Origin: Aquabacterium sp.
Lineage (GTDB): Bacteria > Pseudomonadota > Gammaproteobacteria > Burkholderiales > Burkholderiaceae_C
Assembly: GCA_023150345.1 (NCBI GenBank)
Contig: JAKLLB010000027.1
Location: 1 to 43,333, forward strand
Reading direction: 5' to 3'
DNA: 43,333 nt
In this document: one piece after another, positions 9,773 through 25,536 of the stretch
Position numbering within the stretch: the stretch's first letter is position 1
Layout of the letters: the number at the start of each line of letters is the position of its first letter
Notes under the pieces: generated by a model
What the model was told of the DNA's origin: nothing
Databases searched by the model: none
What the model saw: only the letters and a program-made list of their open reading frames with translations
Translations under genes and position numbers: made by a program

Positions 9773-10717
9773 ATGAGCGCGGGGCACGACCACGCCTTGC
9801 CGGCGACGACCAAGGAGCGCTCGCTGCGCTGGGCATTGGTGCTGACCTCGGCCTTCCTCATCGCCGAGGTCGTGGGGGGCGTCGTCCTGAACAGCCTTGC
9901 GCTGCTGTCCGATGCCGCGCACATGTTCACCGATGTGGCTGCGCTCGCGATCGCGTTGGCGGCCATCAGGATTGCCCGCCGGCCTGCGGATCAGCGTCGG
10001 ACCTTTGGCTATCACCGCTTCGAGATCCTGGCAGCGGCCTTCAATGCGCTGCTGTTGTTCGGCGTCGCCGGCTACATACTCTTCGAAGCGTGGCAGCGCT
10101 GGCGCCAGCCCGAGGAGGTGCAGACGACCGGGGTGCTGGTGGTGGCGGCGCTCGGGCTGGTGGTGAATCTCGCGAGCATGTGGATGTTGCGTTCAGGCAA
10201 GGACGCCAGCCTGAACGTCAAGGGTGCCTATCTCGAGGTGTGGAGCGACATGCTGGGATCGATCGGCGTGATTGCTGGCGCGATCGTGATACGCATCACC
10301 GGCTGGAACTGGGTCGATTCGGTGATCGCGGTGGCCATCGGACTGTGGGTTCTGCCGCGGACCTGGGTGCTCTTGAAGGACACCCTGAACATCTTGCTGG
10401 AAGGAGTTCCCGAAGGCATCGACATGGCGGCGGTCAGGCAGTCCCTGCTGGGCCTGCCGGGCGTGCTGGGTGTGCACGATCTTCACGTGTGGGCCGTCAC
10501 CAGCGGCCGGACCAGTCTCACGGTCCACCTGGTGCATGCCCCCGACGTCGCGGCGCCGGTAGAACTTCTCGAGCGGGCACGCACAGTCCTCGCGGCGGAG
10601 CATCACATCACCCACACGACGATTCAGCTTGAGACGCAGCCCTGCGCACAAGCCGACGTGGCCGTCGGCCCTGGAGGCAGTGGCGAACTGGCATCGCGTG
10701 AGGATGCCCATGCCTAG
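9773..10717 (+). CDS. czcD: CzcD-type cation diffusion facilitator
   Basis: Inner-membrane proton antiporter exporting Zn/Co/Cd-type divalent cations from the cytoplasm. 314 aa, six membrane helices. The metal-site helices read SDAAHMFTDVAALAIAL (HxxxD, helix 2) and YLEVWSDMLGSIGVIAG (helix 5). The C-terminal cytoplasmic domain contains GVHDLHVWAVTSGRTSLTVH, typical of CzcD. The chosen start opens MSAGHDH and has GAGAGGG just upstream; the open frame extends further left but without a ribosome site. It follows the PII-like gene by 46 nt, so it is likely in the same operon. It supplies periplasmic metal to the RND pump. Confidence 0.92.
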   Translation: MSAGHDHALPATTKERSLRWALVLTSAFLIAEVVGGVVLNSLALLSDAAHMFTDVAALAIALAAIRIARRPADQRRTFGYHRFEILAAAFNALLLFGVAGYILFEAWQRWRQPEEVQTTGVLVVAALGLVVNLASMWMLRSGKDASLNVKGAYLEVWSDMLGSIGVIAGAIVIRITGWNWVDSVIAVAIGLWVLPRTWVLLKDTLNILLEGVPEGIDMAAVRQSLLGLPGVLGVHDLHVWAVTSGRTSLTVHLVHAPDVAAPVELLERARTVLAAEHHITHTTIQLETQPCAQADVAVGPGGSGELASREDAHA

Positions 10718-10861
10718 ACCGGCAGCGTGGACAGCTCGACCGGTGTGCGCCATGGAGTCTGGTTGCACGAGGAACCACGGCGCCCGCATTCCCAACCACC
10801 CGGGTGTCCGGTCGTCGCCGCGGCGACCACACGCCAAACCCGTCAACTGAAGGAGAACTGA

Positions 10862-11404
10862 GTGAACTTCGATCGACGCAAGCTGATCGCCGCAGCCCTC
10901 GGCGGCACGGCGCTGCTGACCACCGGTTGCATGACCAAACCCCTGCGCCCGGCCAACGCCGATGGGACGTACTGCTACCGCATCGGCAAGAGCTATCGCC
11001 CCAAACTGACCTGCACGCCGGGTCCTGTTCCCTCCGCGCAAGTCGAGTCGCAGGCTCGCGCTTTCGGTGGATCGGCCGATCGCCTCACGGTCTATCTCGT
11101 GCGCAAGCGCTGGGGTGATACGGAGCACGTGATCTCGGTGTCGACCCCAGGAACGGCCCCAGCGCAAACCGTGCCCGAGAGCTTTGCGCGCCTGCGGCTG
11201 GCGCCCGGACAGCACGTGCTGACCGCCACATGGCCCGAAGGAACGGCAGGCCTCGAGATCTCGGGCAAGGCTGGGGAAGTGCTGGTGGTGGAAGTGATCG
11301 GGCAAGTCTGGGTCTGGGGCAGCAAGTACCGCCTCGAACCTGGAACGATCGACGACGCCCGCGAACGCACGCGCAACCTCCGACTGGTTGCGGACGTTGG
11401 TTGA
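10862..11404 (+). CDS. Small lipoprotein, paralogue of the one at 29089
   Basis: A 180-aa exported lipoprotein with a GTG start and GAAGGAGAA upstream. The N-terminus has a twin-Arg-like RRKLIAAALGGTALL and lipobox TTGC. The mature part has YCYRIGKS, CTPGPVPSA, LTVYLVRKRWGD, APGQHVLTA, KAGEVLVVEV, VWVWGSKY and a closing RNLRLVADV. The same motifs in the same order occur in the protein at 29089, which ends the second RND operon. The beta-rich layout with LTVY..R, PG.H and AGE resembles DUF2846-type lipoproteins (inference). Location after czcD suggests a periplasmic role in metal handling; function is unknown. Confidence 0.78.
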   Translation: MNFDRRKLIAAALGGTALLTTGCMTKPLRPANADGTYCYRIGKSYRPKLTCTPGPVPSAQVESQARAFGGSADRLTVYLVRKRWGDTEHVISVSTPGTAPAQTVPESFARLRLAPGQHVLTATWPEGTAGLEISGKAGEVLVVEVIGQVWVWGSKYRLEPGTIDDARERTRNLRLVADVG

Positions 11405-11472
11405 AGACGCTTGCGACCTCGTGACGCGAGCGACTGCCGGTGCCCGGACAGCACGGGCCAGCGAATTCCAGC

Positions 11473-11723
11473 ATGAGACCTCGACTGGCCGATCCCGAGC
11501 TCTCGCTCGCGATGACCTGGATCTGGATCGGCGTGCTGCTGGCCGCGCTGGGGCGTATGGCATCTTCCGCTGGTGGCGCCGTGGACATCCGCGCAAGCAG
11601 CCACCAGCACCGCTGAGCTACTCCGCCGAACTGAGCCAGCGATTGCAGAAGAACATGAACAAGGGCACGAAGCGCAGGCGGCGTGGCAAGACCGCGAAGA
11701 AGAAGCCGCCGCGCCGCCCGTGA
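11473..11723 (+). pseudogene. Frameshifted small basic membrane protein
   Basis: Two frames join into one plausible protein. From 11473 the first frame reads MRPRLADPELSL, then a membrane helix MTWIWIGVLLAALG. At the GGGG run (11550-11553) the sense continues in another frame as AYGIFRWWRRGHPRK, then LSYSAELSQRLQKNMNKG and a Lys/Arg-rich tail ending PPRRP with a stop at 11721-11723. Adding one G to the run would restore a single ~84-aa protein with one transmembrane helix and a very basic tail. It is either a true frameshift or a sequencing error in the G run. Confidence 0.6.
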
Positions 11724-11737
11724 AAGGTGTGCCGAGA

Positions 11738-12073
11738 TCAGCCGCCCGTCAGCAGTTCGAGGCGCGTGCGGCGGGCATCGGGCGACTCGGCGCGCATCTC
11801 GTCGATGACCTGCTGCCGCGTCTTCGGCGGCTCGGAACTCTTGACCGGCAGCGGCGCTCCACGCTGCAACAGCGCCAGCGTGCCGTCCTTGCGCGCTGCG
11901 TCGACCTCGGCCATCACCTGGGCACGGGTCTTGGCGCTCTTGAAGTGCTCGGGGTGGTAAGTCACACCGGCTTCGCCGCCCGCGGTGTGCCAGACCGAAT
12001 TGGCCTGCGCCGCCAGCGGCAGCGTGAACGCGAAGGCGACGGCAGGGACCAGAGCGAGACGGAAGACATTCAT
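11738..12073 (-). CDS. DUF4148-type secreted protein, czcR-like regulon member
   Basis: A 111-aa protein with a signal peptide (MNVFRLALVPAVAFAFTLPL, cleavage near AAQA). The mature part has two related helical segments, SAKTRAQVMAEVDAARKDG and KTRQQVIDEMRAES, the signature of DUF4148 proteins, which are abundant in Burkholderiales and of unknown function. It is divergent from the response regulator gene. Its promoter has an operator and -10 spacing identical to those of the czcE-like gene and the gene at 14238, so it is probably induced by the adjacent two-component system. The 5' leader would begin with a UUCG-capped stem-loop. Confidence 0.82.
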   Translation of the reverse strand: MNVFRLALVPAVAFAFTLPLAAQANSVWHTAGGEAGVTYHPEHFKSAKTRAQVMAEVDAARKDGTLALLQRGAPLPVKSSEPPKTRQQVIDEMRAESPDARRTRLELLTGG

Positions 12074-12114
12074 GTCGAGATCCTTTCAGGGGGAAGAGCA
12101 GGAGACCTGCGATG

Positions 12115-12132
12115 GCATGCCCGAAGGCATGC
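12115..12132 (-). other. 5'-terminal UUCG stem-loop in DUF4148 leader
   Basis: In the leftward transcript GCAUGCC pairs with GGCAUGC around a UUCG loop closed by C-G, one of the most stable RNA tetraloops. The -10 box at 12137-12142 places the transcription start at about 12130, so the hairpin would sit at the very 5' end. A similar hairpin built from CATGCC/GGCATG opens the czcE-like leader. Confidence 0.6.
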
Positions 12133-12136
12133 GCCC

Positions 12137-12190
12137 ACTGTAGGAATCGGCACCCCACATGAAGGAAACGAACAGATGACAGTTCGGACA
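12137..12190 (-). promoter_or_regulatory. CzcR/CopR-type operator and -10 of DUF4148 gene
   Basis: Read leftward the core is TGTCCGAACTGTCA (12177-12190), a TGACA-N4-TGTCA-type dyad like the CusR/CopR boxes of metal-responsive OmpR-family regulators. Exactly 30 nt after TCATCTG comes the -10 TACAGT (12137-12142). The 15-nt string CCGAACTGTCATCTG is identical to that upstream of the czcE-like gene. The site also lies 33 nt before the response regulator start, so it may autoregulate that operon. Confidence 0.72.
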
Positions 12191-12222
12191 GGCCTGGTGC
12201 GCCAACAGGCGGGGGCACTGCC

Positions 12223-12909
12223 ATGAAGCTCCTGATCGTGGAGGACGAGGCCAAGCTGGCCGACTACCTGCGCAAGGGACTGGTGGAAGAGGGCTATGTC
12301 GTCGAGGTGACTGGCAATGGCATCGACGGGCTGCACATGGCGACAGAAGGCAGCCACGACCTCATCGTGCTCGACACCATGCTGCCCGGCATCGACGGGC
12401 TCGGCCTGCTCGCAGCGCTGCGCCAGAGCAAGCAGACGCCGGTGATCATGCTGACCGCCCGCCATCGTGTGGAAGACCGGGTGCGCGGCCTGAAAGCCGG
12501 CGCGGACGACTATCTCGTCAAGCCGTTCGCCTTCTCCGAACTGGTGGCCCGCATCGAGGTACTGCTGCGCCGCGCCGCCGGCGCCGCGCCTGCGCCTGAC
12601 GCCCTGCTGCTGTCGCTGGGTGATCTGCAGGTGGACCTGGCGCGGCGACGTGCCGTGCGCGCCGGCCAGCGTCTGGAACTGTCCGCAAAGGAGTTTCAGC
12701 TTCTGACGCTGCTGATGCGGCGCAAGGGCGAGGTGCTCTCCCGTACCGAGATCGCCGAGCAGGTCTGGGACGTCAATTTCGACCACGGCACCAATGTGAT
12801 CGACGTCGCCATCCGGCGCCTGCGCGGGAAGCTGGACCTGCCCTTCGAGCACCCGCTGCTGCACACCGTGCGCGGCATGGGCTACGTGCTCGAGGACCGC
12901 AGCCCATGA
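12223..12909 (+). CDS. czcR: OmpR-family response regulator, CzcR/CopR/IrlR type
   Basis: Cytoplasmic DNA-binding response regulator, 228 aa. Receiver domain (1-115) with acidic pocket VEDE, phosphoacceptor Asp51 in IVLDTMLPGIDG, Thr in MLTAR and Lys in LVKPF. The C-terminal winged helix (about 130-225) contains LSAKEFQLLTLLMRRKG and DVAIRRLRGKLD. It belongs to the heavy-metal response regulator subfamily. It overlaps the kinase gene by 4 nt. Its probable operators are the three TGACA-N4-TGTCA-like sites at 12177, 14621 and 20629. The gene could equally be named copR or irlR; metal specificity is not readable. Confidence 0.9.
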   Translation: MKLLIVEDEAKLADYLRKGLVEEGYVVEVTGNGIDGLHMATEGSHDLIVLDTMLPGIDGLGLLAALRQSKQTPVIMLTARHRVEDRVRGLKAGADDYLVKPFAFSELVARIEVLLRRAAGAAPAPDALLLSLGDLQVDLARRRAVRAGQRLELSAKEFQLLTLLMRRKGEVLSRTEIAEQVWDVNFDHGTNVIDVAIRRLRGKLDLPFEHPLLHTVRGMGYVLEDRSP

Positions 12910-14234
12910 GTCGGCTGCACGCTGGATCGCTCGACCGCCGCCTGGCTCGCTGGCTCGCACTGCTGGCCCTGGCGGGGCTCACACTGACGTGCATGGGCGT
13001 CTACACGGCGACGACCCTGAGCTTCGAGGATCGGCAGGCGGACACGCTGCGCCAGAAGCAACTCCAGGTGCGTCATTTGATCGCCGAGGCCGGCGTGGTG
13101 GGAAATGCGGCGCTGACGCACAAGCTCGACGATGCGATGGTCGGCCGGCAGGACCTGACGCTGGTGCTCACCGATGCGAAGGGCCAGGTCCTGTATGCCG
13201 GACCCACCGCACCGCCGTTGCGCCAGACCCTGGTCACGCGGTTTGAGGCGGCAACGGCATCCGGTCCGGTCCAGGCGACCCTGACTCTGGACACCACCGA
13301 AGACGACCGTGTGCTGTCCCGACTCGCCCGCACGCTCGCCGCAGCTGCGCTGGCCGGTTCGATCATCATTGCAATCGGCGGCTTCACGCTGGTGCAGCTT
13401 GGACTGCGCCCGGTCCGTAACCTTGCTTTGCAGGTCCAGGCTTTGGCGGCCGACACCTTGGATCGCCGGCTCGATGGATCGGCCCAGCCGGAGGAGCTCG
13501 CCGCACTGGTTCAGCATGTCAACGATCTGCTGGACCGATTGCACCGGGCCTACGAGCAGCTGGAGGCCTTCAATGCCGACGTCGCGCACGAACTGTTCAC
13601 GCCGCTGGCGACGCTGATCGGAGGTACGGAAGTCGCCCTGCGCAAGGCGCGCGAAGCCGATGAACTGCGCGACGTACTGGGCGAGCACCTCGAAGAACTG
13701 CAGCGCATGTCGCTCATCGTTCAGGACATGCTCTTCCTGTCCCAGGCTGACCGCGGTGCGAAGGCGCGGCGCGAGACAGTGCAGAGCCTTGCCGACGTCG
13801 CCAGCGCAGTGGCCGAACTGCACGAGGCACACATGGAAGAGGCTGGACTGCGTTGGCGCATCGACGGCGACGCGGGTGGGGCCCTCGACGCCCGCTTGCT
13901 CCAGCGGGCCCTGTCCAATCTCATTGGAAATGCCACTCGACACGCGCAGCGGGGCAGCGAGGTGGTTGTGCGGATCGAGGGGAGCCGTGACGAGACCTCG
14001 CTGAGCGTGGTGAATCAAGGTGCGACGATCGCGCCCGAACACCTGCCGCGTCTGTTCGATCGGTTCTACCGGGTCGATGCCTCTCGCAGCGGAGCGGCCC
14101 GCAACCACGGGCTGGGCCTGGCCATCGTGGCCGCCATCGCGCGAATGCACAGTGGTCGGGTGGCGGCCACCTCGAGCGACGGAACCACGTCCATCGGGCT
14201 CGTCATCCCGACGACGCCCACCGAACCGGCCTGA
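12906..14234 (+). CDS. czcS: Heavy-metal sensor histidine kinase, CzcS/CopS type
   Basis: Inner-membrane sensor, 442 aa. First helix about residues 18-38, a short periplasmic domain to about 140, second helix about 146-168, HAMP (RPVRNLALQVQALAADTLDR), then HisKA with His228. The H-box reads ADVAHELFTPLATLIG; the usual HELRTPL arginine is Phe231. The ATPase domain has an N-box (LSNLIGNATRHA), a degenerate G1 (VNQGATIAPEHL instead of DxGxG), an F-box (LFDRFYRVDASR) and G2 (GLGLAIVAAIA). Translation is coupled to the regulator by ATGA overlap. Its periplasmic loop is only ~110 residues, as in CzcS and CusS. Confidence 0.88.
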   Translation: MSRLHAGSLDRRLARWLALLALAGLTLTCMGVYTATTLSFEDRQADTLRQKQLQVRHLIAEAGVVGNAALTHKLDDAMVGRQDLTLVLTDAKGQVLYAGPTAPPLRQTLVTRFEAATASGPVQATLTLDTTEDDRVLSRLARTLAAAALAGSIIIAIGGFTLVQLGLRPVRNLALQVQALAADTLDRRLDGSAQPEELAALVQHVNDLLDRLHRAYEQLEAFNADVAHELFTPLATLIGGTEVALRKAREADELRDVLGEHLEELQRMSLIVQDMLFLSQADRGAKARRETVQSLADVASAVAELHEAHMEEAGLRWRIDGDAGGALDARLLQRALSNLIGNATRHAQRGSEVVVRIEGSRDETSLSVVNQGATIAPEHLPRLFDRFYRVDASRSGAARNHGLGLAIVAAIARMHSGRVAATSSDGTTSIGLVIPTTPTEPA

Positions 14235-14237
14235 CGG

Positions 14238-14549
14238 TCAGAGGCAACTGCCCGCGATGTCCCGAGCGCGGCCGGGCGCGGGCATGCGGTCCAGCTTCTT
14301 GGCATCCACCAGGCTGAGCCCGGTGCCCGACGCCGACGACGGCACGGCCATCCCGGCATTGTCCAGGCGCTTCGCGACGGTGAGGGTCACGCCGCTCATG
14401 ACAGGCGCCGTGGTCGCTGCAGGTGCCAAGGCCCGATCCTCCAGGCGCTTCATCTTGGCGACGTCGGTCGTGCACACGGTAGCCGCGGAAGCTGTACCAG
14501 CCAACATCAGCGAAAGCGTCGCGAGCGCGGCACTCAAAGAGGTCTTCAT
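14238..14549 (-). CDS. Small secreted protein, czcR-like regulon member
   Basis: A 103-aa protein with a signal peptide ending AGTASAA. The mature part has a lone Cys in ATVCTTDVAKMKRLEDRAL, a repeated motif (VAKRLDNAG and DAKKLDRM) and a C-terminal Cys (DIAGSCL), so one disulfide is possible. I do not recognise the family. It ends 3 nt after the kinase stop on the opposite strand. The upstream operator and -10 spacing match those of the DUF4148 and czcE-like genes. The longer open frame upstream is rejected because it would run through the promoter. Confidence 0.65.
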   Translation of the reverse strand: MKTSLSAALATLSLMLAGTASAATVCTTDVAKMKRLEDRALAPAATTAPVMSGVTLTVAKRLDNAGMAVPSSASGTGLSLVDAKKLDRMPAPGRARDIAGSCL

Positions 14550-14580
14550 GGTTTGCTTGGGATTGGTTGCGACAACTTCC

Positions 14581-14637
14581 AGTTTGGCTGGCGACGACTG
14601 ACGCGACCTGAACGGCAAGATGACAGTTCTGTCAGAT
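14581..14637 (-). promoter_or_regulatory. CzcR/CopR-type operator and -10 of gene at 14238
   Basis: This is the most symmetric of three copies: TGACAGTTCTGTCA (14621-14634), a 5-bp inverted repeat around GTTC. Leftward, AACTGTCATCTT is followed after exactly 30 nt by CAAACT (14581-14586) as -10. The transcript would start near 14574, with a small GUUG-UCG-CAAC hairpin close to its 5' end. Confidence 0.7.
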
Positions 14638-15060
14638 GCCGACCGTCGTGGCCGCGACACGTGCCCCGGACCGGCACGCGGGCGATGCAGCACGCGGCCG
14701 CAGGGTTCACCAGCATTCTCAGGTCCTGGAAGACTCACCGAGCGGGCACAGGCCGATGAGCGTCAAGAGCAGGCACATCCCGGCACGCATCGATTGCGAC
14801 CGGCGGGAGCTGCAGTGTGGTCGGCCTCGGTCCGTCCATCCGCGTCCCTGCGCCGGCGTCGAACTGCGGAACGCGACCCACACGTCAGGGACGAGTGAGA
14901 CTTCCCATGCGATCTGATGGATCAGCCCTCACGGTTCCGGCAGTGCTGCGCGCTACTCGCCGCGTGCCCAAATGTGCGCTCCCGGCTCAGCGAACTGAGC
15001 AGTTTCTCTAGCACCTTGGCGCCCAGGGCGCTGCAGATCACCACTGAAGTCAAACCTCGC
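14638..15060. other. Gene-free stretch
   Basis: About 420 bases without a convincing gene. Short open frames exist on both strands but none has a ribosome site or recognisable protein. A leftward fragment near 14930-15040 (VICSALGAKVLEKLL) looks protein-like and may be the end of a lost gene. It separates the two-component/secreted-protein group from the Dsb/PCuAC group. Confidence 0.4.
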
Positions 15061-15717
15061 TCAGGGCGTCGCTGACTTCTTGAGTTCCTGCTGTACAAGT
15101 GCCTTCAACTGCGCCTCGCCGAACTCGCGCAGCGGCGTGCCGTTGACGAAGAACCCGGGTGTCCGATCCACTTTCAGTGCCTGCATGTCCGCGATGTCCT
15201 GCCGCAGCAGCTGGTCGATCGCTGGCCCGTCGGCATCCGCCCTCGCCTTCGTCATGTCGAGGCCGATGTCGCCGATGAGAGCCCAAATCATTTCCGGCTG
15301 TGGGCGGTCATGAGAGGCCCATTGAGGCTGGGCAGCAAGGGCACGCTCGAGCGCTTCCCAGTACTTGCCCTGCACCCGCGCCGCCTCGAGGATCTTGACG
15401 GCGGTGTCTGACCCATGGTGCAGCGGGGCGTTGCGCATCACGAGCCTGACCTGGCCGAAGCTCGCGTTGACCATGCCCTTGACGATCGGGTAGAAGGCCC
15501 GGCAGGTCTCGCAGGATGGGTCGAAGAACTCGACGATCGTCACCTTCGCCGCCGGATTGCCGAACACGGGCGAGTGCGGCCTGACCAACGCTTCGCTGTT
15601 GATCTGCGCCGCCTGCTTCACTTCCTGGTTCGAGCGGTTCGTGAAGACCGCCACGCCGGCCACGAAGGCCAGAACGACCGCCAAGGCAGTGCCCAGAACG
15701 ATCCATTTCCTGCTCAT
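15061..15717 (-). CDS. DsbA-like thiol oxidoreductase, membrane-anchored
   Basis: A 218-aa thioredoxin-fold protein with an N-terminal membrane anchor or uncleaved signal (WIVLGTALAVVLAFVAGVAV), placing the domain in the periplasm. The active site is DPSCETCRAFYP (CxxC = CETC), followed by the DsbA-type helical insertion and the cis-Pro strand TPGFFVNGTPL. Family members introduce or transfer disulfides. Its ATG overlaps the stop of the dsbB-like gene, so the two are a DsbA/DsbB pair. With PCuAC upstream, a role in maturing Cys-containing metal proteins or protecting thiols from copper is likely (inference). Confidence 0.87.
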   Translation of the reverse strand: MSRKWIVLGTALAVVLAFVAGVAVFTNRSNQEVKQAAQINSEALVRPHSPVFGNPAAKVTIVEFFDPSCETCRAFYPIVKGMVNASFGQVRLVMRNAPLHHGSDTAVKILEAARVQGKYWEALERALAAQPQWASHDRPQPEMIWALIGDIGLDMTKARADADGPAIDQLLRQDIADMQALKVDRTPGFFVNGTPLREFGEAQLKALVQQELKKSATP

Positions 15718-16172
15718 GTTGTTGCCCTCGCTCTTGCCATCCACAACGCCACCAGGATCCCCGAGAACGCCGTGAGCGACAGCAAGGGAATCGGCACCAC
15801 GCCGGCCACCTGGACGTCGGCGTCGGCGCAGGACGACCCCTTGCCGCACGGCACCAGCCCCTCCGACACGACGCCCCAGAAGACCAGCAGGTGGTAGGCG
15901 GCGATGCTCCATCCCACGGCGGCCAGCGGCAGTGCGTAACGAACGCTGCGCGCATCCGATGTGAACAGTCCCAGGCCGAGCACCAGCACCAGCGGAAACA
16001 TCGCGATGCGCTGGTACCAGCACAGCACGCACGGCGCCTTGCCCATCACCTCGCCCAGAAACAGCGCGCCGGACGTGGCCAGCAGCGCCAGCAACCAAGC
16101 CAGGAACAGGGGCGTCCAGAACGCGGCGTTCCGGCCGTCGCCATGCGGGGCAATCGGCTGTTCTTCGCTCAT
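15714..16172 (-). CDS. dsbB: DsbB-like disulfide bond formation protein
   Basis: Inner-membrane quinone-linked oxidase that reoxidises DsbA, 152 aa with four membrane helices. The first periplasmic loop has the CxxC pair in APCVLCWYQRIAMFPL, the classic DsbB/DsbI signature. The second loop has the other pair in LVPCGKGSSCADADV. The start at 16172 overlaps the PCuAC stop by 4 nt, and the stop overlaps the dsbA-like ATG, so three proteins are translationally coupled. The open frame extends upstream, but that part is a shadow of the PCuAC gene. Confidence 0.88.
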   Translation of the reverse strand: MSEEQPIAPHGDGRNAAFWTPLFLAWLLALLATSGALFLGEVMGKAPCVLCWYQRIAMFPLVLVLGLGLFTSDARSVRYALPLAAVGWSIAAYHLLVFWGVVSEGLVPCGKGSSCADADVQVAGVVPIPLLSLTAFSGILVALWMARARATT

Positions 16173-16639
16173 CGTGTCGGCGGCGTGAATCCAGCCGTCG
16201 CGTTCACCTCGATCTTCGACACGCTCCCGTCGGCCGCCGTGAACGAGAGCGTCAGGGGCACGCGCTCGCCCGCCTTGATCTGCTTTTTCAGGTCCATCAT
16301 CATGACGTGCAGACCGCCCGACTTCAGCTCGATCGTCTGGCCGGCCTTCAAGGGCACACGATCGGCTGGCCGCATCCGCATGATGCCCTGGTCCATCCAC
16401 ATCTCGTGAACTTCGACGATGCCGGCGACCGGCGAATTGGCGCACGTCAGCACAACATCCTTCTGGGCGGTCAGCCGCATGAAGGCGCCGGTGGCCGACT
16501 GGTTCGGCACAGTGGCGCGTGCCCAGGCGCCATCGACGGTCACCTGCGCGTGGACCGTCGACGCGGTACCCGCAGCCAGCAGCGCAGCGAGGCATCGGGA
16601 CAACACGCGGTCTGCAACAGGAAGCCCCATGCCCACCAT
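16169..16639 (-). CDS. PCu(A)C-type periplasmic copper chaperone
   Basis: A ~156-aa exported protein: signal peptide ending TVHAQ, then a cupredoxin-like PCuAC domain. Its Cu(I) site matches the family pattern H-(M)x10-M-x21-HxM: VHEMWMDQGIMRMR and GGLHVMMMDLK. Such proteins deliver Cu(I) to periplasmic cuproproteins or hold it safely. The start is either 16639 (MVGMGLPV) or the ATG at 16630. It is coupled to dsbB by a 4-nt overlap, which points to joint handling of copper and thiols in the periplasm. Confidence 0.88.
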   Translation of the reverse strand: MVGMGLPVADRVLSRCLAALLAAGTASTVHAQVTVDGAWARATVPNQSATGAFMRLTAQKDVVLTCANSPVAGIVEVHEMWMDQGIMRMRPADRVPLKAGQTIELKSGGLHVMMMDLKKQIKAGERVPLTLSFTAADGSVSKIEVNATAGFTPPTR

Positions 16640-16674
16640 TCTCGCCGGGGGAACTGTGCGTGGCGTCTGCGCAT

Positions 16675-17226
16675 TCAAGTCGAGTTTCCTTGACCGGCCG
16701 GGCCCCCGGCCAGCCCGGGCCGGAACGAGGCCCATATCAGCAGTGCCGCGCTGCCGACGACGAAGATGTCCGCCAGATTGAAGGCGGGCCAATGCGTGTC
16801 GCGCCAATGCAGATCGAGGTAGTCGATCACAGCACCGATGCGCATCCGGTCTACGACGTTGCCCAGCGCACCGCCGATCATGCCAACGTAGGCGATCATC
16901 TCGAGTCGGGTCCGAACGCCGCGCCAGAGGAGGGCTGCCAGCGTCGCACTGACGGCAACGCCGACCGCAATGAGTGCGTGGCGCTGCCAACCGCCGGCGT
17001 CGGCCAGAAAGGAGAATGAGGCTCCCGGATTGAGGACATGGACCAGATTGAACCAGGCGGTGACGGCAACAACTTCGCCAGGGGGCAGGTTCGTGGCCAC
17101 CACCCATTTGACGATCTGGTCCAGCGAAAGCAGCAAAGCAGCGGCACCCATGAGGCGCCACCAGTGCCCGCGCCGGGCAGTCCTCGCGGCGCGTGGTGCG
17201 GCAAGACCCGCAGGTGCGTGTGTCAT
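16675..17226 (-). CDS. lspA: Lipoprotein signal peptidase (LspA), resistance-island copy
   Basis: Inner-membrane aspartyl protease that cleaves prolipoproteins, 183 aa with four helices. Motifs present are LVHVLNPGASFSF, GGALGNVVDRMRIGAVIDYL (first catalytic Asp) and FNLADIFVVGSAALL (second catalytic Asp). Accessory lspA copies are common beside cadA/pbrA ATPase genes (for example PbrC of the pbr operon). This one lies downstream of the P-type ATPase in the same direction. Here the substrates may include the lipoproteins of the RND operons (inference). Confidence 0.92.
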   Translation of the reverse strand: MTHAPAGLAAPRAARTARRGHWWRLMGAAALLLSLDQIVKWVVATNLPPGEVVAVTAWFNLVHVLNPGASFSFLADAGGWQRHALIAVGVAVSATLAALLWRGVRTRLEMIAYVGMIGGALGNVVDRMRIGAVIDYLDLHWRDTHWPAFNLADIFVVGSAALLIWASFRPGLAGGPAGQGNST

Positions 17227-17271
17227 CGCTCGCAGGCCTCGGTCAATGGCATGGGTTCGCGGACCCGGCGT

Positions 17272-17565
17272 TCAATCGAAGAGATCTCGCAGAAACGACT
17301 TGCGCTTGTGACCACTGGCGTAGCGGTCGTCATGCCGCGAGCGGTGACCTCCGTGGCCGTGCTCGGGTGTCGCTGAAGGGAACTGCGGTGCGGCGGGCAT
17401 CGGAAGGGGAGCCGTCGCAGTCGATTCCATGGCCGAGCGTTCGACGATTTTGTCGAGTTCACCGCGGTCGAGCCAGACGCCACGGCACTTGGGGCAGTAG
17501 TCAATTTCGATGCCCTGACGCTCCATCATCGACAGGCGCTCGGTCTTGCACACGGGACAATCCAC
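17272..17565 (-). CDS. TFIIB-type zinc-ribbon protein
   Basis: A 97-aa protein with an N-terminal zinc ribbon of the zf-TFIIB family: CPVCKTERLSMMERQGIEI then DYCPKCRGVWLDRGELDKI, giving CxxC...CxxC. A linker and His-rich segment follow (EHGHGGHRSRHDDRY), then a basic end, KRKSFLRDLFD, the usual C-terminal FLxDLF signature. The GTG start at 17565 has AGGAGT seven nt upstream and gives the usual M-x-CPVCK opening; the ATG at 17580 is the alternative. Function unknown; such proteins recur beside metal-resistance genes. Confidence 0.82.
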   Translation of the reverse strand: MDCPVCKTERLSMMERQGIEIDYCPKCRGVWLDRGELDKIVERSAMESTATAPLPMPAAPQFPSATPEHGHGGHRSRHDDRYASGHKRKSFLRDLFD

Positions 17566-17743
17566 TTTCTGACTCCTCATTGCCGAGCAGATGCTCGGAA
17601 TCTGGTGGGATAGATACAGGGACGAGGCATCGGCATTTGCTCGTCCCTCATGGCCACGGGATGGCCACCTCGACAGGCGGCCGGCGGAGAAGAGCATTCA
17701 CAGACGGCTCCCTCCAAAGCAGCGCCCAGGACCGACCCCGGTG

Positions 17744-20065
17744 TCATACCGCCTTCCCCCCCTTCTTGAGCAGCCGAAGCCCGTTGCCCACCACCAGGAG
17801 ACTGGCCCCCATGTCGGCGAAGATCGCCATCCACATCGTCGCGCTGCCGAAGACCGCGAGCACCAGGAACACAGCCTTGATGCCCAGAGCCAGCGTGATG
17901 TTCTGCCACAGCACGACATGTGTGGAGCGGGACAGTTGAACCGTCTCGGCAATGCGGCGCAGGTCATCGTTCATCACCACCACATCCGCCGCCTCCATCG
18001 CGGTGTCGGTGCCGGCTGCCCCCATCGCCACGCCGATGTCGGCCTGCGCCAGCGCTGGTGCGTCGTTGATGCCGTCGCCGGTCATCGCGGTCGGACCGTG
18101 CTCTGCCTGGAGTGCCTTGATCGCTTCGAGCTTGTCCTCGGGCAGCAGGTTCCCGCGCGCTTCATCGATGCCGGCTTCTTGCGCGATGGCCGTGGCCGTG
18201 GCCTGGTTGTCGCCCGTCAGCAACACCGGTGTGATGCCCAGGGCCTTCAGCGCTGAGACGGCTTCACGAGACGAATCCTTGATCGTGTCGGCAACGGCAA
18301 ACAAGGCGATCGGGCCGGCGTCGGAGGCCAGCAGGCTGACGGTGCGGCCGGCTTCCTCATGGGTGCGCAAGGTCGCCTCGAGGTCCGGCGAACACTGGCC
18401 ACGCTCCTCGATCAGCCGGTGGTTGCCCAGCACATAGGTGCTGCCGGCGATGTCGGCCTGCACCCCGCGACCAGCCAGCGCCTTGAAGTTCTGCGCCTGC
18501 ACGCTGTTGGACTTGAGCCCCGCGGCGATGGCGCGAGACACTGGGTGGTCCGAGTGACTGGCCAGCACGAAGCCCATGTGCTCGGCATTCGCTGCATCGG
18601 TTGCCGGATTGAGTACGGACCAGTCCACCAGCCGCGGCTTGCCCTCGGTGATGGTGCCGGTCTTGTCGAGCGCAATCGCCTTGAGCTTGCGCGCCTCTTC
18701 CAGGTAGATGCCGCCCTTGATGAGGATGCCGCGGCGCGCTGCGGCTGCCAGGCCGCTGACGATCGTCACCGGCGTGGAGATCACCAGCGCGCAGGGGCAT
18801 GCGATGACCAGCAGCACGAGGGCCTTGTACACGCCTTGCAGCCACGTCCAGCCGAGCAGCCAAGGGCCGAGCAGTGCTACTGCCACGGCGATCACGAACA
18901 CCGCCGGCGTGTAGATCGCCGCAAACCTGTCGACAAAGCCCTGCGTCGGCGCCCGGGTCGCCTGAGCCTCCTCCACGGCGTGGATGATGCGCGCCAAGGT
19001 CGAATTCGAAGCCAGTGCGGTGACCTCGAACTCGAATGTCCCCGACTCGTTGATGGTGCCGGCAAAGACCGGATCCCCGCTCGCCTTGTCGACGGGGATG
19101 CTCTCGCCGGTAACCGGCGCCTGATTGATACTGGTCTGCCCCGAGCGGACGACGCCGTCCATCGGAACGCGCTCCCCCGGCTTCACCCGCAGCAGAGCGC
19201 CAACCGCGACTTGACCCACGGGCAGCGTCGCCCAGCTGCCATCGGCCTGGCGAACCGATGCCTGCTCCGGTGCCATCGCCAGCAGGCCCTTGATGGCGTT
19301 GCGCGCGCGGTCCACGGCCCTGGCCTCGATCGCCTCGGCGATGGCGTACAGCGCCATCACCATCGCGGCTTCCGGCCACTGGCCGATCGCGAAGGCGCCC
19401 GTCACGGCCACGGTCATCAGCGCGTTGATGTTCAGCCGCCCGTGCCGCAGCGCCGTCAGACCCTTCTTGTAGACGTCGAAGCCGGCGAGCCAGATCGCAA
19501 TGGCCGCCACGGCAAGTCCCGCCCCCCGCCAGACCATGGTCTCGGGCGCAAAGTAGCCGATGATCTCGGCGCCGATGGCCAGGAGAAGCGCCCCGGCCAA
19601 CTTGGGGACCTGGCCTCGCACGACCTCGTGATCATGACCGTCGCCCGCCGCATGGCCGGCCTCTGATTCGCCGCCGGCGATCGGCTGCGGGTCGAAACCG
19701 GACTTGCGCACGGCCGCCAGCGCAGGTGCGATCGACGACTCGTCGGCATCGATCGTGAGCACCCGCTGGCCCAGTTGGAATCGCAGGCCGCGAATGCCTG
19801 GCATGCCATCAAGGGTACGCCGGATCTCGGCCTCCTCGGCCGCGCAGTCCATCGTCGCGATCCGGAAACTGCGCCCCCGCGCTGATGGGTCGCCGCGTTG
19901 CAGCGGCGTCGCAGGCATGGCGCAGGCGCCGCAACCGTCGTCCGCGCACGCGGCTTCCTTCACCTGCGCCGGAGGGTCGATGTGCCGGGCGTCATGGGCG
20001 TGGGCATGACCATCGTCGTGATGGTGCCGGTGTGTGTTGCCGCCTTCGGCATGGGAATGGCTCAT
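17744..20065 (-). CDS. cadA: Cd/Zn/Pb-exporting P1B-ATPase (CadA/ZntA/PbrA type)
   Basis: Inner-membrane divalent-cation pump, 773 aa. The N-terminus is His-rich (THRHHHDDGHAHAHDARH), with a Cys cluster DDGCGACAM. One HMA domain carries MDCAAEEAEI, the Glu-bearing Zn/Cd/Pb form. Then come the actuator TGES, ion-binding CPCALVISTPV, phosphorylation DKTGTITEGK, SDHPVSRAI (HP motif) and GDGINDAPAL. The last helix region before the stop carries LLVVGNGLRLLKKG. The promoter is a CadR-type 19-bp-spacer element and the divergent regulator is CadR/PbrR-like, which favours Cd/Pb/Zn over copper. Confidence 0.93.
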   Translation of the reverse strand: MSHSHAEGGNTHRHHHDDGHAHAHDARHIDPPAQVKEAACADDGCGACAMPATPLQRGDPSARGRSFRIATMDCAAEEAEIRRTLDGMPGIRGLRFQLGQRVLTIDADESSIAPALAAVRKSGFDPQPIAGGESEAGHAAGDGHDHEVVRGQVPKLAGALLLAIGAEIIGYFAPETMVWRGAGLAVAAIAIWLAGFDVYKKGLTALRHGRLNINALMTVAVTGAFAIGQWPEAAMVMALYAIAEAIEARAVDRARNAIKGLLAMAPEQASVRQADGSWATLPVGQVAVGALLRVKPGERVPMDGVVRSGQTSINQAPVTGESIPVDKASGDPVFAGTINESGTFEFEVTALASNSTLARIIHAVEEAQATRAPTQGFVDRFAAIYTPAVFVIAVAVALLGPWLLGWTWLQGVYKALVLLVIACPCALVISTPVTIVSGLAAAARRGILIKGGIYLEEARKLKAIALDKTGTITEGKPRLVDWSVLNPATDAANAEHMGFVLASHSDHPVSRAIAAGLKSNSVQAQNFKALAGRGVQADIAGSTYVLGNHRLIEERGQCSPDLEATLRTHEEAGRTVSLLASDAGPIALFAVADTIKDSSREAVSALKALGITPVLLTGDNQATATAIAQEAGIDEARGNLLPEDKLEAIKALQAEHGPTAMTGDGINDAPALAQADIGVAMGAAGTDTAMEAADVVVMNDDLRRIAETVQLSRSTHVVLWQNITLALGIKAVFLVLAVFGSATMWMAIFADMGASLLVVGNGLRLLKKGGKAV

Positions 20066-20092
20066 CGCAAGAATCCTCGTTGACCTTGCCTC

Positions 20093-20123
20093 ATTGCAAA
20101 CCCTGTAGCCAGTGTAGAGTCAA
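20093..20123 (-). promoter_or_regulatory. CadR/PbrR-type MerR operator of the ATPase gene
   Basis: Leftward -35 TTGACT (20118-20123), 19-nt spacer CTACACTGGCTACAGGGTT, and -10 TGCAAT (20093-20098). The CTACA...TACAGGGT dyad resembles known CadR/PbrR operators. It sits between the ATPase start (20065) and the cadR-like start (20162), so the regulator probably controls both directions. Confidence 0.85.
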
Positions 20124-20161
20124 GTCCCTGTCCTGATCAGGGAAGTCGAAGGATTGCAGCC

Positions 20162-20605
20162 ATGAAGATCGGAGCCCTGGCCGAGGCCACCGGAACACCC
20201 GTCGAGACGATCCGCTTCTACGAGCGCGAGGGGCTGCTGCCGCCGCCGGCCCGGGCGGACAACAACTACCGCGTCTACCTGCCGGCGCACGCCGAGCGGC
20301 TCGCCTTCATCCGGCAGTGCCGCAACCTGGGCATGACGCTCGACGAAATCAGAGCCCTCATCGCACTACGCGAGTCGCCCGCGCAGGATTGCGGCGAGGT
20401 CAACGCCCTGCTGGACGAACACATCGGCCATGTGGCGCACCGCATTCGCGAGCTGCGAGCGCTGGAGAAGGATCTGAAGTCACTGCGCGCGCGGTGCGCG
20501 GCGCCCCACGCCCTGGCGGATTGCGGCATCCTCAACGGCCTCGACGGGGCCGCCGCCGCGCCCGCGGCCCCGGCGAAGCGGCGCCACGTTCACGGCGCTC
20601 ACTGA
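20162..20605 (+). CDS. cadR: MerR-family Cd(II)/Pb(II)-responsive regulator
   Basis: Dimeric DNA-binding regulator, 147 aa. The HTH (MKIGALAEATGTPVETIRFY) opens the protein, followed by the wing with RVYLP and the long dimerisation helix. Metal-binding cysteines are at 77 (QDCGE), 112 (RARCAA) and 121 (ADCGIL), the CadR arrangement. The C-terminus adds an Ala/Pro-rich stretch and RRHVHGAH, a His-rich tail that resembles the extra metal site of CadR proteins. It activates the divergent ATPase promoter by distorting the 19-bp spacer (family knowledge). PbrR is a close alternative name. Confidence 0.92.
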   Translation: MKIGALAEATGTPVETIRFYEREGLLPPPARADNNYRVYLPAHAERLAFIRQCRNLGMTLDEIRALIALRESPAQDCGEVNALLDEHIGHVAHRIRELRALEKDLKSLRARCAAPHALADCGILNGLDGAAAAPAAPAKRRHVHGAH

Positions 20606-20625
20606 GCCGGCGCAGGCCTCGGGCC

Positions 20626-20682
20626 AGATGACCGAACTGTCATCTGCCGGTTCCGAAACTGTTGCCAGGCGATTTCTAGAGT
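20626..20682 (+). promoter_or_regulatory. CzcR/CopR-type operator and -10 of czcE-like gene
   Basis: AGATGACCGAACTGTCATCT (20626-20645) is a long dyad whose core TGACCGAACTGTCA matches the sites at 12177 and 14621. After TCATCTG, exactly 30 nt precede the -10 TAGAGT (20677-20682). A second degenerate copy, CCGAAACTGTTGCC, lies 22 nt downstream of the first CCGAACTGTCA. In Cupriavidus czcE is a target of CzcR (family knowledge), which fits. Confidence 0.75.
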
Positions 20683-20689
20683 CCGTGGC

Positions 20690-20706
20690 CATGCCATCGA
20701 GGCATG
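20690..20706 (+). other. 5'-terminal stem-loop in czcE-like leader
   Basis: CATGCC (20690-20695) pairs with GGCATG (20701-20706) around ATCGA. The -10 at 20677-20682 puts the start of transcription at about 20689, so the hairpin begins the mRNA, as in the DUF4148 leader where the arms are nearly the same sequence. Confidence 0.5.
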
Positions 20707-20745
20707 CGGCTGAGTGAAAGCCGATCACACCACCACGAGGAACTC

Positions 20746-21096
20746 ATGCAATCACCTTCGTCATCCCTTCTGCGCCTGTCGGCCGTGCTGGTCGTGGCGG
20801 CCGCGCCTGCCGTCGGCTTCGCGGCTGGCGAGACCTTCATGAACGGCCAATCCATCTACGGCCAGCCAGCCGCCGTGTCGAGCGCGGCTCGTGTCGTCGA
20901 ACTGGCGCAGGCCCCGCGCCCGAACATCGCCTACGGCGAGACGGTCGCCTTCCGCGGCGACGCCGGACAGCAGTTCGCATGGACCTTCAATGGCTTGGAC
21001 CGGCGTGGCGTCGACCTCGCCCAGATCGCGCCGCCGGGCTTCGGCGCGAAATCCGCCGTCGCCTACGTCGGGCGCGATCCGTCCAACCGCCACTGA
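20746..21096 (+). CDS. czcE: CzcE-like periplasmic metal-binding protein
   Basis: A 116-aa exported protein. A signal peptide (through about AAPAVGFAAG) is followed by a small beta-rich domain with ARVVELAQ, YGETVAFRG, QQFAWTFNGLDRRGVDL, QIAPPGF and AVAYVGRDP. The VxxGETVxF...FxWxF...DLxxIAP...VYV pattern is that of CzcE, a periplasmic copper-binding protein of the Cupriavidus czc determinant. GAGG precedes the ATG at 20746; the frame is open to 20704, but that region is the transcribed leader hairpin. Controlled by the shared CzcR-type operator. Confidence 0.8.
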   Translation: MQSPSSSLLRLSAVLVVAAAPAVGFAAGETFMNGQSIYGQPAAVSSAARVVELAQAPRPNIAYGETVAFRGDAGQQFAWTFNGLDRRGVDLAQIAPPGFGAKSAVAYVGRDPSNRH

Positions 21097-21214
21097 GCGC
21101 AGTCCGACGCGCGCACACGCGCCGGCCGAGATCGGCCGGCGGCGGACTTGACCCAGTAGTGGCTTCAGGGTCTGAAATGCGGCTGTCGCCGCCTGGAGCC
21201 ACCCAGATCGAGTC

Positions 21215-21928
21215 ATGTCCGACGCACCTTTGCCACTGCTTCGCAGCACGCCGCTGCTCGACACCCAACATCCCGACATCGAGCGGCTTGTCGCCGAACG
21301 GGGGTGGCGCGTGCTGCCGATGCGCGAGCGGATCGGCGCGGTCTACGACTTCGTCCGCGACGAGATTTCATTCGGCTACAACGAGGCGGACGATCTGCCG
21401 GCATCCCGCGTGCTGGCCGACGGCAGTGGGCAGTGCAACACCAAGGGCACGCTGCTGATGGCCTTGCTGCGCAGCGTCGGCGTGCCGTGCCGTTTCCACG
21501 GTTTCACCATCGACAAGGCGCTCCAGAAGGGCGCGATCACCGGCGTTGCGTATGTCCTCGCGCCACGGCGCATCATCCACAGTTGGGTGGAGGTCTGGTT
21601 CGAGGAGCGATGGGTCTGTCTCGAGGGATTCATCCTCGACGCGCAGTACCTTCGCAGCCTGCAACGCCGATTCCGTGGTACGCGACGTTTCTGCGGTTTC
21701 GGCGCCGCTACCCGGGACCTGTCGGCGCCGGACGTCGAGTGGCGTGGCCAGGACACCTTCATCCAGAAGGAGGGCATCGTCGACGACTTCGGGACCTTCG
21801 ACGATCCCGACTCGTTCTATGCCTGGCATGGCACCAACCTGCGCGGACCGAAGCGATGGCTTTTCGTGCACGCGATCCGCCGCTGGATGAACGACAACGT
21901 GGCACGCGTCCGCGCCGGGCGGTGGTGA
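21215..21928 (+). CDS. Transglutaminase-like cysteine protease-fold protein
   Basis: A 237-aa cytoplasmic-looking protein (no signal peptide) with the transglutaminase core. The catalytic Cys is in GQCNTKGTLLMALLRSVGV, His in RIIHSWVEVWFEERWV and Asp in LEGFILDAQYL, giving the Cys-His-Asp triad in order. Family members act as proteases, amidases or acyltransferases; the substrate is unknown here. It sits between czcE-like and czcI on the same strand, with 118-nt and 68-nt gaps, and it is not a usual member of metal operons. Confidence 0.75.
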   Translation: MSDAPLPLLRSTPLLDTQHPDIERLVAERGWRVLPMRERIGAVYDFVRDEISFGYNEADDLPASRVLADGSGQCNTKGTLLMALLRSVGVPCRFHGFTIDKALQKGAITGVAYVLAPRRIIHSWVEVWFEERWVCLEGFILDAQYLRSLQRRFRGTRRFCGFGAATRDLSAPDVEWRGQDTFIQKEGIVDDFGTFDDPDSFYAWHGTNLRGPKRWLFVHAIRRWMNDNVARVRAGRW

Positions 21929-21973
21929 TGTCCTTCACGCCTCCGCTTGGCCTCGCATGCCCGCGGTCAACCC

Positions 21974-21988
21974 TGTAGCCGCTACACT
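21974..21988 (+). promoter_or_regulatory. Promoter of second czcI with CadR-like dyad
   Basis: The -10 TACACT (21983-21988) is eight nt before the ATG at 21997 with no Shine-Dalgarno, suggesting a leaderless transcript as for the first czcI. It overlaps a perfect dyad TGTAG-CCG-CTACA (21974-21986) within ACCCTGTAGCCGCTACACT. The half ACCCTGTAGCC is identical to one half of the CadR-type operator at 20099, so the CadR-like regulator might also touch this promoter (inference). Confidence 0.45.
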
Positions 21989-21996
21989 CTGATTTC

Positions 21997-22368
21997 ATGC
22001 GCCGCTGGCTCGCCATTCTGTTGCTGGTTCTGCTGCCCACCCAGATGTCCTGGGCGGCAGTGGCGGACTACTGCGCCCATGAATCGGGTGCGGCAGCGGA
22101 CCATGTCGGGCACCACGATCACGCCGATCACGGGCATGCGCCTGCATCGGCGGATGTGTCCGATCAGTCGGGTGCTGACGAAGGCGCCACCTCGACGCCT
22201 GACGCAGACTGCGGCCATTGCCATGGTCAGTGCACAGGCATGTTGGTGTCGCTCGTCACCACTGCGCACGACCGCGCCACGGCCGCCCCGACTCCCGCCG
22301 GCGATGCACCGTGCGCTGCCCAGGCGGCAGCCCAACCTGAACGCCCTCAGTGGGCACGCCTCGCCTGA
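21997..22368 (+). CDS. czcI: CzcI-like small exported protein (operon 2)
   Basis: A 123-aa protein built like the one at 3276: MRRWLAILLLVLLPTQMSWA signal, then YCAHES, a His-rich run (VGHHDHADHGHAP), a Cys/His cluster DADCGHCHGQCTG, and the tail QPERPQWARLA. It heads the second RND operon. CzcI is a small periplasmic protein typical of the first position in czc operons. A stem-loop spans its stop codon. Confidence 0.82.
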   Translation: MRRWLAILLLVLLPTQMSWAAVADYCAHESGAAADHVGHHDHADHGHAPASADVSDQSGADEGATSTPDADCGHCHGQCTGMLVSLVTTAHDRATAAPTPAGDAPCAAQAAAQPERPQWARLA

Positions 22369-22379
22369 TCGGCGAGGCG
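22357..22379 (+). other. Stem-loop spanning second czcI stop codon
   Basis: CGCCTCGCC (22357-22365) pairs perfectly with GGCGAGGCG (22371-22379). The 5-nt loop TGATC holds the TGA stop (22366-22368). A weak T-rich stretch (GTTCGTTCTC) follows, so partial termination is possible. The same arrangement follows the first czcI. Confidence 0.68.
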
Positions 22380-25526: not shown

Positions 25527-25536
25527 GGAGCCCCCG

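What the first reader, a model, noticed from the sequence alone, without database searches (positions are those of the whole stretch)
12137..20682. Three-promoter regulon with operator exactly 30 nt from -10
Sequence shows three near-identical sites: TGTCCGAACTGTCA (12177-12190, leftward), TGACAGAACTGTCA (14621-14634, leftward) and TGACCGAACTGTCA (20629-20642). Each is followed by TCATCT, then exactly 30 nt to a -10 (TACAGT, CAAACT, TAGAGT). The genes behind them are all small secreted proteins: DUF4148, a 103-aa unknown and a CzcE-like protein. The core resembles the TGACA-N4-TGTCA box of CusR/CopR-type regulators. The czcRS-like pair lies between the sites, so it is the probable regulator (inference). 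This would define a periplasmic metal-stress regulon separate from the pumps.
Basis: partly seen in the sequence, partly recalled or inferred. Interest (0 to 1): 0.75.

Follow-up and report, generated by a model that had tools for sequence, protein, structure and literature searches.

The report
CopR-type metal regulon with fixed promoter spacing
Three genes for small exported proteins in a metal-resistance island share the operator of the CopR/CusR family of metal-sensing regulators at one fixed distance from the promoter; the operator type is known, but it ties a protein family of unknown function (DUF4148) to metal sensing.

Summary
The three sites are real. The 17-mer TGWCNGAACTGTCATCT is exact only at these three places in the held 4.58-Mb genome, and 13 of 13 exact copies in 299 family genomes fall in islands that carry this regulator. 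The constant spacing is real but misquoted: 34 nt from the 14-mer to the -10 (31 after TCATCT), not 30. The core is the known 6-4-6 operator of CusR/CopR/AgrR-type response regulators, and the window regulator passes TIGR01387. At 92 related regulator promoters TAnAnT lies exactly 33 nt after the 16-mer in 54, and in at most 2 at any other offset from 10 to 49. Half-sites recur at +11 and +22 bp. E. coli cusC has the same spacing. For C. metallidurans copA1 it predicts a start 2 nt from the published copper-induced one. New here: CzcE genes are general targets (25 of 30), and most DUF4148 genes beside such regulators carry an HPxH motif (11 of 15, against 0 of 21 others). 'Separate from the pumps' is not established. 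Binding by this regulator and metal response are inferred.

The parts
12176..12191 (-). Operator 1 (16-mer CTGTCCGAACTGTCAT read towards DUF4148); divergent between DUF4148 and the regulator gene
   Evidence: orthologous sites
12137..12142 (-). -10 TACAGT of DUF4148, 33 nt after the 16-mer; predicted start near 12130
   Evidence: conserved in orthologues; start position inferred
11738..12073 (-). DUF4148 protein, 111 aa, putative signal peptide; H29-E34-H40-H43 (WHTAGGEAGVTYHPEH) at about 11945-11989
12223..12909 (+). Response regulator, cztR_silR_copR subfamily
   Evidence: TIGR01387 301.7 bits, cut-off 279.2
12906..14234 (+). Heavy-metal sensor histidine kinase
   Evidence: TIGR01386 349.7 bits, cut-off 292.55
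14620..14635 (-). Operator 2 (16-mer CTGACAGAACTGTCAT) of the 103-aa gene
14581..14586 (-). -10 CAAACT of the 103-aa gene; CACACT and GAGACT in two relatives
14238..14549 (-). 103-aa protein with putative signal peptide, no family
20628..20643 (+). Operator 3 (16-mer ATGACCGAACTGTCAT) of CzcE
20677..20682 (+). -10 TAGAGT of CzcE
20746..21096 (+). CzcE-family protein
   Evidence: PF16986 57.3 bits, cut-off 30
20644..20676 (+). Spacer of the CzcE promoter with half-site G at +7 (20650) and +18 (20661); the same two G occur in the other two spacers (12169 and 12158; 14613 and 14602, minus strand)

Best explanation
The three sites are operators of a CopR/CusR-family metal-sensing two-component system encoded between them (12223-14234). 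The kinase senses a periplasmic metal and phosphorylates the regulator. The regulator binds the 6-4-6 palindrome and probably two weaker half-sites 11 and 22 bp further on, which together reach from about -62 to about -24. The promoters have no recognisable -35; the bound regulator would hold RNA polymerase at a TAnAnT -10 exactly 33 nt after the palindrome. It so switches on small exported metal-handling proteins: DUF4148, a 103-aa protein and CzcE. Shown: sites, spacing, conservation, families, the published start at the related copA1 promoter. Inferred: binding by this regulator, metal induction, the metal (Zn/Cd/Co more likely than Cu from the CadA, CadR and Czc neighbours), and protein function.
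For: 17-mer exact only at the three sites in the genome; 13 of 13 exact copies in 299 genomes in islands with this regulator, against 3 matches in all for the reversed pattern at up to 1 mismatch. In 22 of 22 operator rows of four promoter kinds the hexamer 34 nt after the 14-mer is nAnAnT. TAnAnT at 33 nt in 54 of 92 regulator promoters, at most 2 elsewhere; in 56 less redundant ones 21, against 0.15 in shuffles, and nAnnnT 43. Half-site G at +7 in 48 and at +18 in 46 of 56. CzcE promoters: operator in 25 of 30, exact register in 20 (shuffles 1.3%). E. coli cusC: 33 nt then TAAAGT. pMOL30 copA1: predicted start 191,245, published copper-only start 191,243 checked by 5' RACE. Regulator subfamily and recognition helix. 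The AgrR operator ATKACANNNNTGTMAT, with a functional promoter-proximal direct repeat, is published (PMC7380067).
Against: Operator 1 fits the palindrome at only 9 of 12, a level expected about 6.5 times in this window by chance. CAAACT is a weak -10. Register exceptions: pMOL30 czcN has an operator but no -10 at 33; for pMOL30 czcE a TACACT lies at 33, but the published basal start (37 bp upstream of czcE, PMC10127602) fits a TACAAT at about 27 better. In the pMOL30 cop cluster the operator scan (9 of 12 or better) gave only three rows near the listed gene starts, and the copR1 side has no -10 at 33. The second half-site G (+18) is A in E. coli cusC. 16 of the 36 family-genome matches have no window relative nearby, more than the 3 of the reversed control; 2 of these 16 keep the register. 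The copA1 check assumes that the paper and NC_007971.2 use the same numbering.
Confidence: 0.82

Rival explanations
1. The operators are read by another paralogous regulator, not (only) by the adjacent one. The genome has two more of this subfamily, on C228 (about 75% identical) and C213 (about 71%).
For: Three regulators of the subfamily in the genome, each facing a DUF4148 gene, with near-identical recognition helices. Overlapping binding by CopR, CusR and CzcR is published for Pseudomonas (PMC11195947, passages).
Against: Operator variants differ by locus: GAAC in the window, AAAC (DUF4148) and GAAG (CzcE) on C228, and a GTAAT half on C213. Islands with the exact 17-mer carry this regulator.
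Confidence: 0.2
2. The promoters use a sigma factor other than the housekeeping one, as proposed for czcE and other czc promoters of C. metallidurans; the palindrome is a secondary modulator.
For: No -35 consensus was found in 11600-14800 or 20000-25600. PMC10127602 and PMC9045368 (passages) class several czc starts as non-RpoD.
Against: The -10 is TAnAnT, close to the TAnAAT of housekeeping promoters (PMC7563307, passages). A promoter whose -35 is replaced by an activator would be scored non-RpoD by a motif search for the same reason. The half-sites occupy the -35 region.
Confidence: 0.12
3. Likeness by descent: one promoter was copied to three genes and no longer works as a regulon.
For: The three 14-mers are 12 to 13 of 14 identical.
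Against: Spacers 12 to 16 of 31 and downstream 6 to 8 of 30 identical; operator, half-sites and -10 are kept in diverged relatives while the rest changed.
Confidence: 0.04
4. Operator 1 mainly serves autoregulation of the regulator gene rather than DUF4148.
For: It lies 31 nt (from the 16-mer) before the regulator's start codon, and in relatives a second -10 stands at 22 nt on that side in 35 of 92.
Against: In the ten sampled relatives with a regulator of 85% identity or more, window included, that -10 is absent and the half-site on that side matches 3 of 6, while the DUF4148 side keeps 6 of 6 and TACAGT or TACATT at 33. Over all 92, half-site quality on that side does not differ between promoters with and without that -10 (p = 0.93).
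Confidence: 0.15

Closest known systems
AgrR operator of Cupriavidus metallidurans (PMC7380067)
   Same: 6-4-6 inverted repeat ATKACANNNNTGTMAT, better conserved promoter-proximal half, additional in-phase direct half-site needed for activation, divergent regulator gene
   Different: Here two downstream half-sites at exactly 11 and 22 bp and a -10 fixed to the base pair; different target genes (DUF4148, CzcE)
CusR box of E. coli cusC (AAAATGACAAnnTTGTCATTTT, quoted in PMC11195947)
   Same: Palindrome and 33-nt register to the -10 TAAAGT
   Different: Target there is the efflux system; +18 half-site G absent; no TAnAnT at 22 nt on the cusR side
37-bp motif about 50 bp upstream of most pMOL30 cop transcription starts (PMC7563307)
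   Same: Length and distance fit palindrome plus two half-sites; many targets are small periplasmic proteins; copA1 start agrees within 2 nt
   Different: Copper cluster; no DUF4148; the motif there was assigned to CopR1 only by proposal
CzcRS of C. metallidurans pMOL30 (PMC10127602)
   Same: Same regulator subfamily; CzcE in the neighbourhood
   Different: 57% identity only; there czcE induction does not need CzcR (czcE still upregulated in the deletion); gene order differs
IrlRS and IrlR2S2 with DUF4148 genes in Burkholderia pseudomallei (PMC7549894, PMC13037405; passages)
   Same: DUF4148 gene beside a heavy-metal-type two-component system
   Different: There DUF4148 lies downstream of the kinase gene; the authors call the neighbourhood possibly coincidental

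Membership tests
Heavy-metal response regulator subfamily (cztR_silR_copR) | NCBIfam TIGR01387 above curated cut-off | tested here: met
   301.7 bits against 279.2
Heavy-metal sensor kinase subfamily (cztS_silS_copS) | NCBIfam TIGR01386 above curated cut-off | tested here: met
   349.7 bits against 292.55
CusR/CopR/AgrR-type operator | 6-4-6 inverted repeat ATKACANNNNTGTMAT | tested here: met
   Sites 2 and 3 match 11 of 12, site 1 only 9 of 12; the promoter-proximal half matches 6 of 6 in all three
CusR/CopR/AgrR-type operator | In-phase downstream direct half-site | tested here: met
   G at +7 and +18 in all three window promoters, 48 and 46 of 56 in relatives
CusR/CopR/AgrR-type operator | Bound by the cognate regulator in vitro | not testable with these tools
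   no binding data
CusR/CopR/AgrR-type operator | Metal-dependent activation | not testable with these tools
   no expression data for this organism
CzcR orthologue (C. metallidurans) | Closest to CzcR and czcDRSE gene order | tested here: not met
   57% to CzcR, 59% to CopR1; gene order differs
CzcE | PF16986 above gathering score | tested here: met
   57.3 bits against 30
DUF4148 | PF13663 above gathering score | tested here: met
   46.3 bits against 27
Periplasmic regulon separate from the pumps | No pump gene transcribed from an operator promoter | tested here: inconclusive
   No further operator of 10 of 12 or better in the window, but CzcE, transglutaminase-like, CzcI and CzcC genes follow one another on the + strand; no transcript data

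The most novel reading that the evidence does not exclude
The cop-type operator is a rigid ruler: a palindrome plus two in-line half-sites at 11-bp steps and a -10 at 33 nt define a class of -35-less, activator-dependent promoters that spread with metal islands through beta- and gamma-proteobacteria and mainly drive small exported proteins. Among these, a DUF4148 subfamily with the motif H-x4-E-x-G-x-T-x-H-P-[DE]-H just behind the signal peptide is the dedicated metal-binding partner of the two-component system. On the regulator side of the same operator, a second -10 at 22 nt (one helical turn less) makes a leaderless regulator mRNA in many relatives, lost in the window clade.
Probability: 0.4. 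Interest if true: 0.6.

Novelty: new member of a known kind. Interest (0 to 1): 0.42.

Why it matters
It turns an eye-spotted motif into a base-pair-precise promoter rule that can find regulon members of heavy-metal two-component systems by sequence alone. It proposes a reason why such promoters would be called 'non-RpoD': the activator takes the place of the -35. It gives DUF4148 a testable role. A paper that studied a DUF4148 virulence factor said that the neighbourhood of DUF4148 genes and heavy-metal two-component systems may be coincidental (PMC7549894, passages); 26 of 61 sampled divergent promoters of this kind drive a DUF4148 gene, and in the window genome 3 of the 4 DUF4148 genes face such a regulator.

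Tried and rejected
Rejected: the 30-nt figure (34, 33 or 31 by reference point). A degenerate 6-4-6 search in the own genome with 2 mismatches: 272 matches counting both strands against 71 for the reversed pattern; the 2-mismatch listing is too unspecific to name further targets. A link between decay of the regulator-facing half-site and loss of the regulator-side -10: true for the 12 loci with half-site score 3 among regulators of 70% or more, but no difference over all 92 (p = 0.93). Plasmid carriage of the whole island: no record of 72,556 covers 80% of 9300-24500; single regulator-DUF4148 pairs do sit on plasmids. Weaker than first counted: the HPxH motif stood at 11 of 13 regulator-linked matches; after the five matches left without a locus were fetched it is 11 of 15 linked, against 0 of 21 distinct unlinked genes (24 matches; three genes were counted twice). 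The probability under independence is about 2e-6 (own arithmetic, C(15,11)/C(36,11)), but the sequences are related. Three of the five added genes are not beside a regulator, lack HPxH, and yet have an operator-like site with TACAGT or TAGAGT at 33 nt, so DUF4148 targets are not limited to the motif or to neighbours. Mended: locus L241 was read at a wrong position; at the right place it has a 12 of 12 operator and TAAAGT at 33, which raises CzcE from 24 to 25 of 30 and the exact register from 19 to 20. Failed scripts: one search stopped with an error after writing its file; one search printed nothing.
Full report
Observation. The distance to the -10 is the same in all three, but it is 34 nt from the 14-mer, 33 nt from the 16-bp palindrome and 31 nt from TCATCT, not 30. 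In the held genome (4.58 Mb, 251 contigs, 94% complete) the 17-mer TGWCNGAACTGTCATCT is exact only here; with two mismatches there is one more match, on contig C228, between another regulator of the same kind and another DUF4148 gene. In 299 genomes of the family there are 36 matches with up to one mismatch, against 3 for the reversed pattern. 13 are exact, and all 13 lie at a DUF4148/regulator, CzcE or 103-aa promoter of an island with this regulator. Of the 23 one-mismatch matches 7 do so too. The other 16 have no window relative in the fetched stretch; 2 of those 16 keep the register, and one of the two (L030, G132) lies about 6 kb from a 62% regulator in the same contig.

What it is. The regulator is a member of cztR_silR_copR (TIGR01387) and the kinase of cztS_silS_copS (TIGR01386), both above cut-off. 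The core matches the published AgrR operator ATKACANNNNTGTMAT (PMC7380067: search listing, passages, section 18 whole, section 19 part 1): sites 2 and 3 at 11 of 12, site 1 at 9 of 12, the promoter-proximal half at 6 of 6 in all three. The recognition helix of the regulator is nearly that of E. coli CusR. Overall it is 59% identical to C. metallidurans CopR1, 57% to CzcR and 53% to CusR, so 'CzcRS-like' is no better than 'CopRS-like'.

Register. In 22 of 22 operator rows from the window and relatives (9 DUF4148, 3 for the 103-aa gene, 7 CzcE, 3 for more distant regulators; several closely related) the hexamer 34 nt after the 14-mer is nAnAnT. For a wider test, 134 distinct upstream regions of regulators with at least 50% identity were taken from the loci then held; 92 have the operator (10 of 12 or better, or 9 for regulators above 70% with the site within 60 nt). 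On the side facing away from the regulator gene, TAnAnT stands at 33 nt in 54 of 92 and in at most 2 at any other offset from 10 to 49; nAnnnT at 33 in 78 of 92, at most 13 elsewhere. In 56 promoters with less than 60% spacer identity to one another: 21 TAnAnT and 43 nAnnnT at 33, shuffle expectation 0.15 for TAnAnT; among the 42 regions without an operator 3 have TAnAnT at 33. Column counts in the 56 show G at +7 (48) and +18 (46), exactly 11 and 22 bp after the G of the palindrome's proximal half, then A at +35 (47) and T at +39 (46). All three window promoters have both G.

Anchors outside the family. E. coli K-12 cusC: ATGACAATTTTGTCAT, 33 nt, TAAAGT, with G at +7 but not at +18. C. metallidurans pMOL30 copA1: CTGTCCGGAATGTAAT (9 of 12), 33 nt, TACTCT, predicted start 191,245. 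PMC7563307 (search listing, passages and section 21) reports a start at 191,243, seen only with copper, says that the copA start was validated by 5' RACE, and describes a 37-bp motif about 50 bp upstream of most cop starts. I assume the same numbering. Against: czcN on pMOL30 has an operator but no -10 at 33; czcE has TACACT at 33, but the published basal start 37 bp upstream (PMC10127602, passages) fits TACAAT at about 27 better; in the cop cluster my scan at 9 of 12 found only three rows near listed gene starts. So the rule is strong but not universal, and the architecture is in essence already in print for C. metallidurans.

Targets. Of the 67 divergent reading frames that began with ATG, were complete and had nAnnnT at 33, I scanned 61, leaving out six near-duplicates and re-setting two starts: 26 are DUF4148, 4 hit cupredoxin families, 3 HbpS-like, 2 CusF, 2 outer-membrane efflux, 2 DUF2946, 1 CzcE, 1 multicopper oxidase, others cytochromes or unassigned. 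CzcE genes: 48 matches in 36 of 299 genomes, 30 given as loci; 25 of 30 have an operator of 10 of 12 or better within 400 nt upstream of the domain (1.3% in shuffles), 20 with nAnnnT exactly at 33 and three more with TACAGT or TAGAGT one nt off. In the window genome 3 of 4 DUF4148 genes face one of three regulators of this subfamily. The regulator-linked DUF4148 proteins mostly carry H-x4-E-x-G-x-T-x-H-P-[DE]-H right after the presumed signal peptide: 11 of 15 linked against 0 of 21 distinct unlinked genes in nine genomes. The two linked ones added last (65% regulators) lack it, and three unlinked ones have an operator-like site without it, so the motif marks a subfamily and not all targets. 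Metal binding by it is inference.

Regulator side. In 35 of 92 promoters nAnnAT stands 22 nt after the operator on the regulator's side, one helical turn less than on the other side; in 31 of these 35 the start codon follows 34 to 36 nt after the operator, which would put the transcription start at or next to the start codon. In the window clade (regulators of 85% or more, 10 loci) this -10 is missing. How the window regulator gene is transcribed is open; no sigma-70 consensus was found near it.

Pumps. No other operator of 10 of 12 or better was found in the window. CadA and CadR (TIGR02047) face each other and presumably use CadR. CzcE, a transglutaminase-like gene, CzcI (NF045614, 100.6 bits against 100) and CzcC follow one another on the + strand with a hairpin at the end of CzcI, so read-through into the pump genes is possible. 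The C228 copy of CzcE has an operator at the same register without those genes behind it.

Literature. Seven searches ran. In their listings, and in the passages I opened, I saw no paper that reports DUF4148 as target of such a regulator or the HPxH subfamily; PMC7549894 (passages) says that no previous study showed an interaction of DUF4148 proteins with two-component systems. Other papers seen as passages only: PMC11195947, PMC12428095, PMC13037405, PMC9045368, PMC7242495. The library holds open-licence papers only.

Verdict. A real, conserved CopR/CusR-type regulon of small exported proteins; a new member of a known kind. The added value is the base-pair register over a wide sample, CzcE as a general target, and the link of DUF4148 to metal two-component systems.

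Noticed in passing
L199, L200, L157, L177 and others (regulator upstream regions): On the regulator side of the operator a second -10 (CAGAAT, GAGAAT, CACAAT) lies at 22 nt, with the start codon 34 to 36 nt after the operator: predicted leaderless regulator mRNA (31 of 35 such promoters).
   Followed up: partly
L039 (G000:C228:1-19053): The window genome holds a second, rearranged copy of the island (CzcE, CadR, CadA, LspA, PCuAC, DsbA/B, kinase, regulator, DUF4148, RND pump), with operators at its CzcE and DUF4148 genes.
   Followed up: partly
L189 (G000:C213:1-12000): A third regulator of the subfamily (about 71% identical), again facing a DUF4148 gene with TACAGT at 33 nt.
   Followed up: partly
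L298, L299, L300: DUF4148 genes not beside a regulator but with an operator-like site and TACAGT or TAGAGT at 33 nt; each has a relative of the window protein 10862-11404 nearby, a protein without a family.
   Followed up: no
window 10862-11404: 180-aa protein with no Pfam match that recurs beside DUF4148 or regulator genes in several relatives.
   Followed up: no
window 22357-22379: GC-rich hairpin at the end of CzcI before CzcC, a possible attenuator or processing site.
   Followed up: no
window 20066-20161: Divergent CadA/CadR region with a MerR-family-like promoter (read by eye; the motif is recalled, not searched).
   Followed up: no
NC_007971.2 85567-85845 (L264:25568-25846): Small hypothetical gene of pMOL30 near czcE whose upstream operator (11 of 12) has TAGACT at 33 nt.
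   Followed up: no
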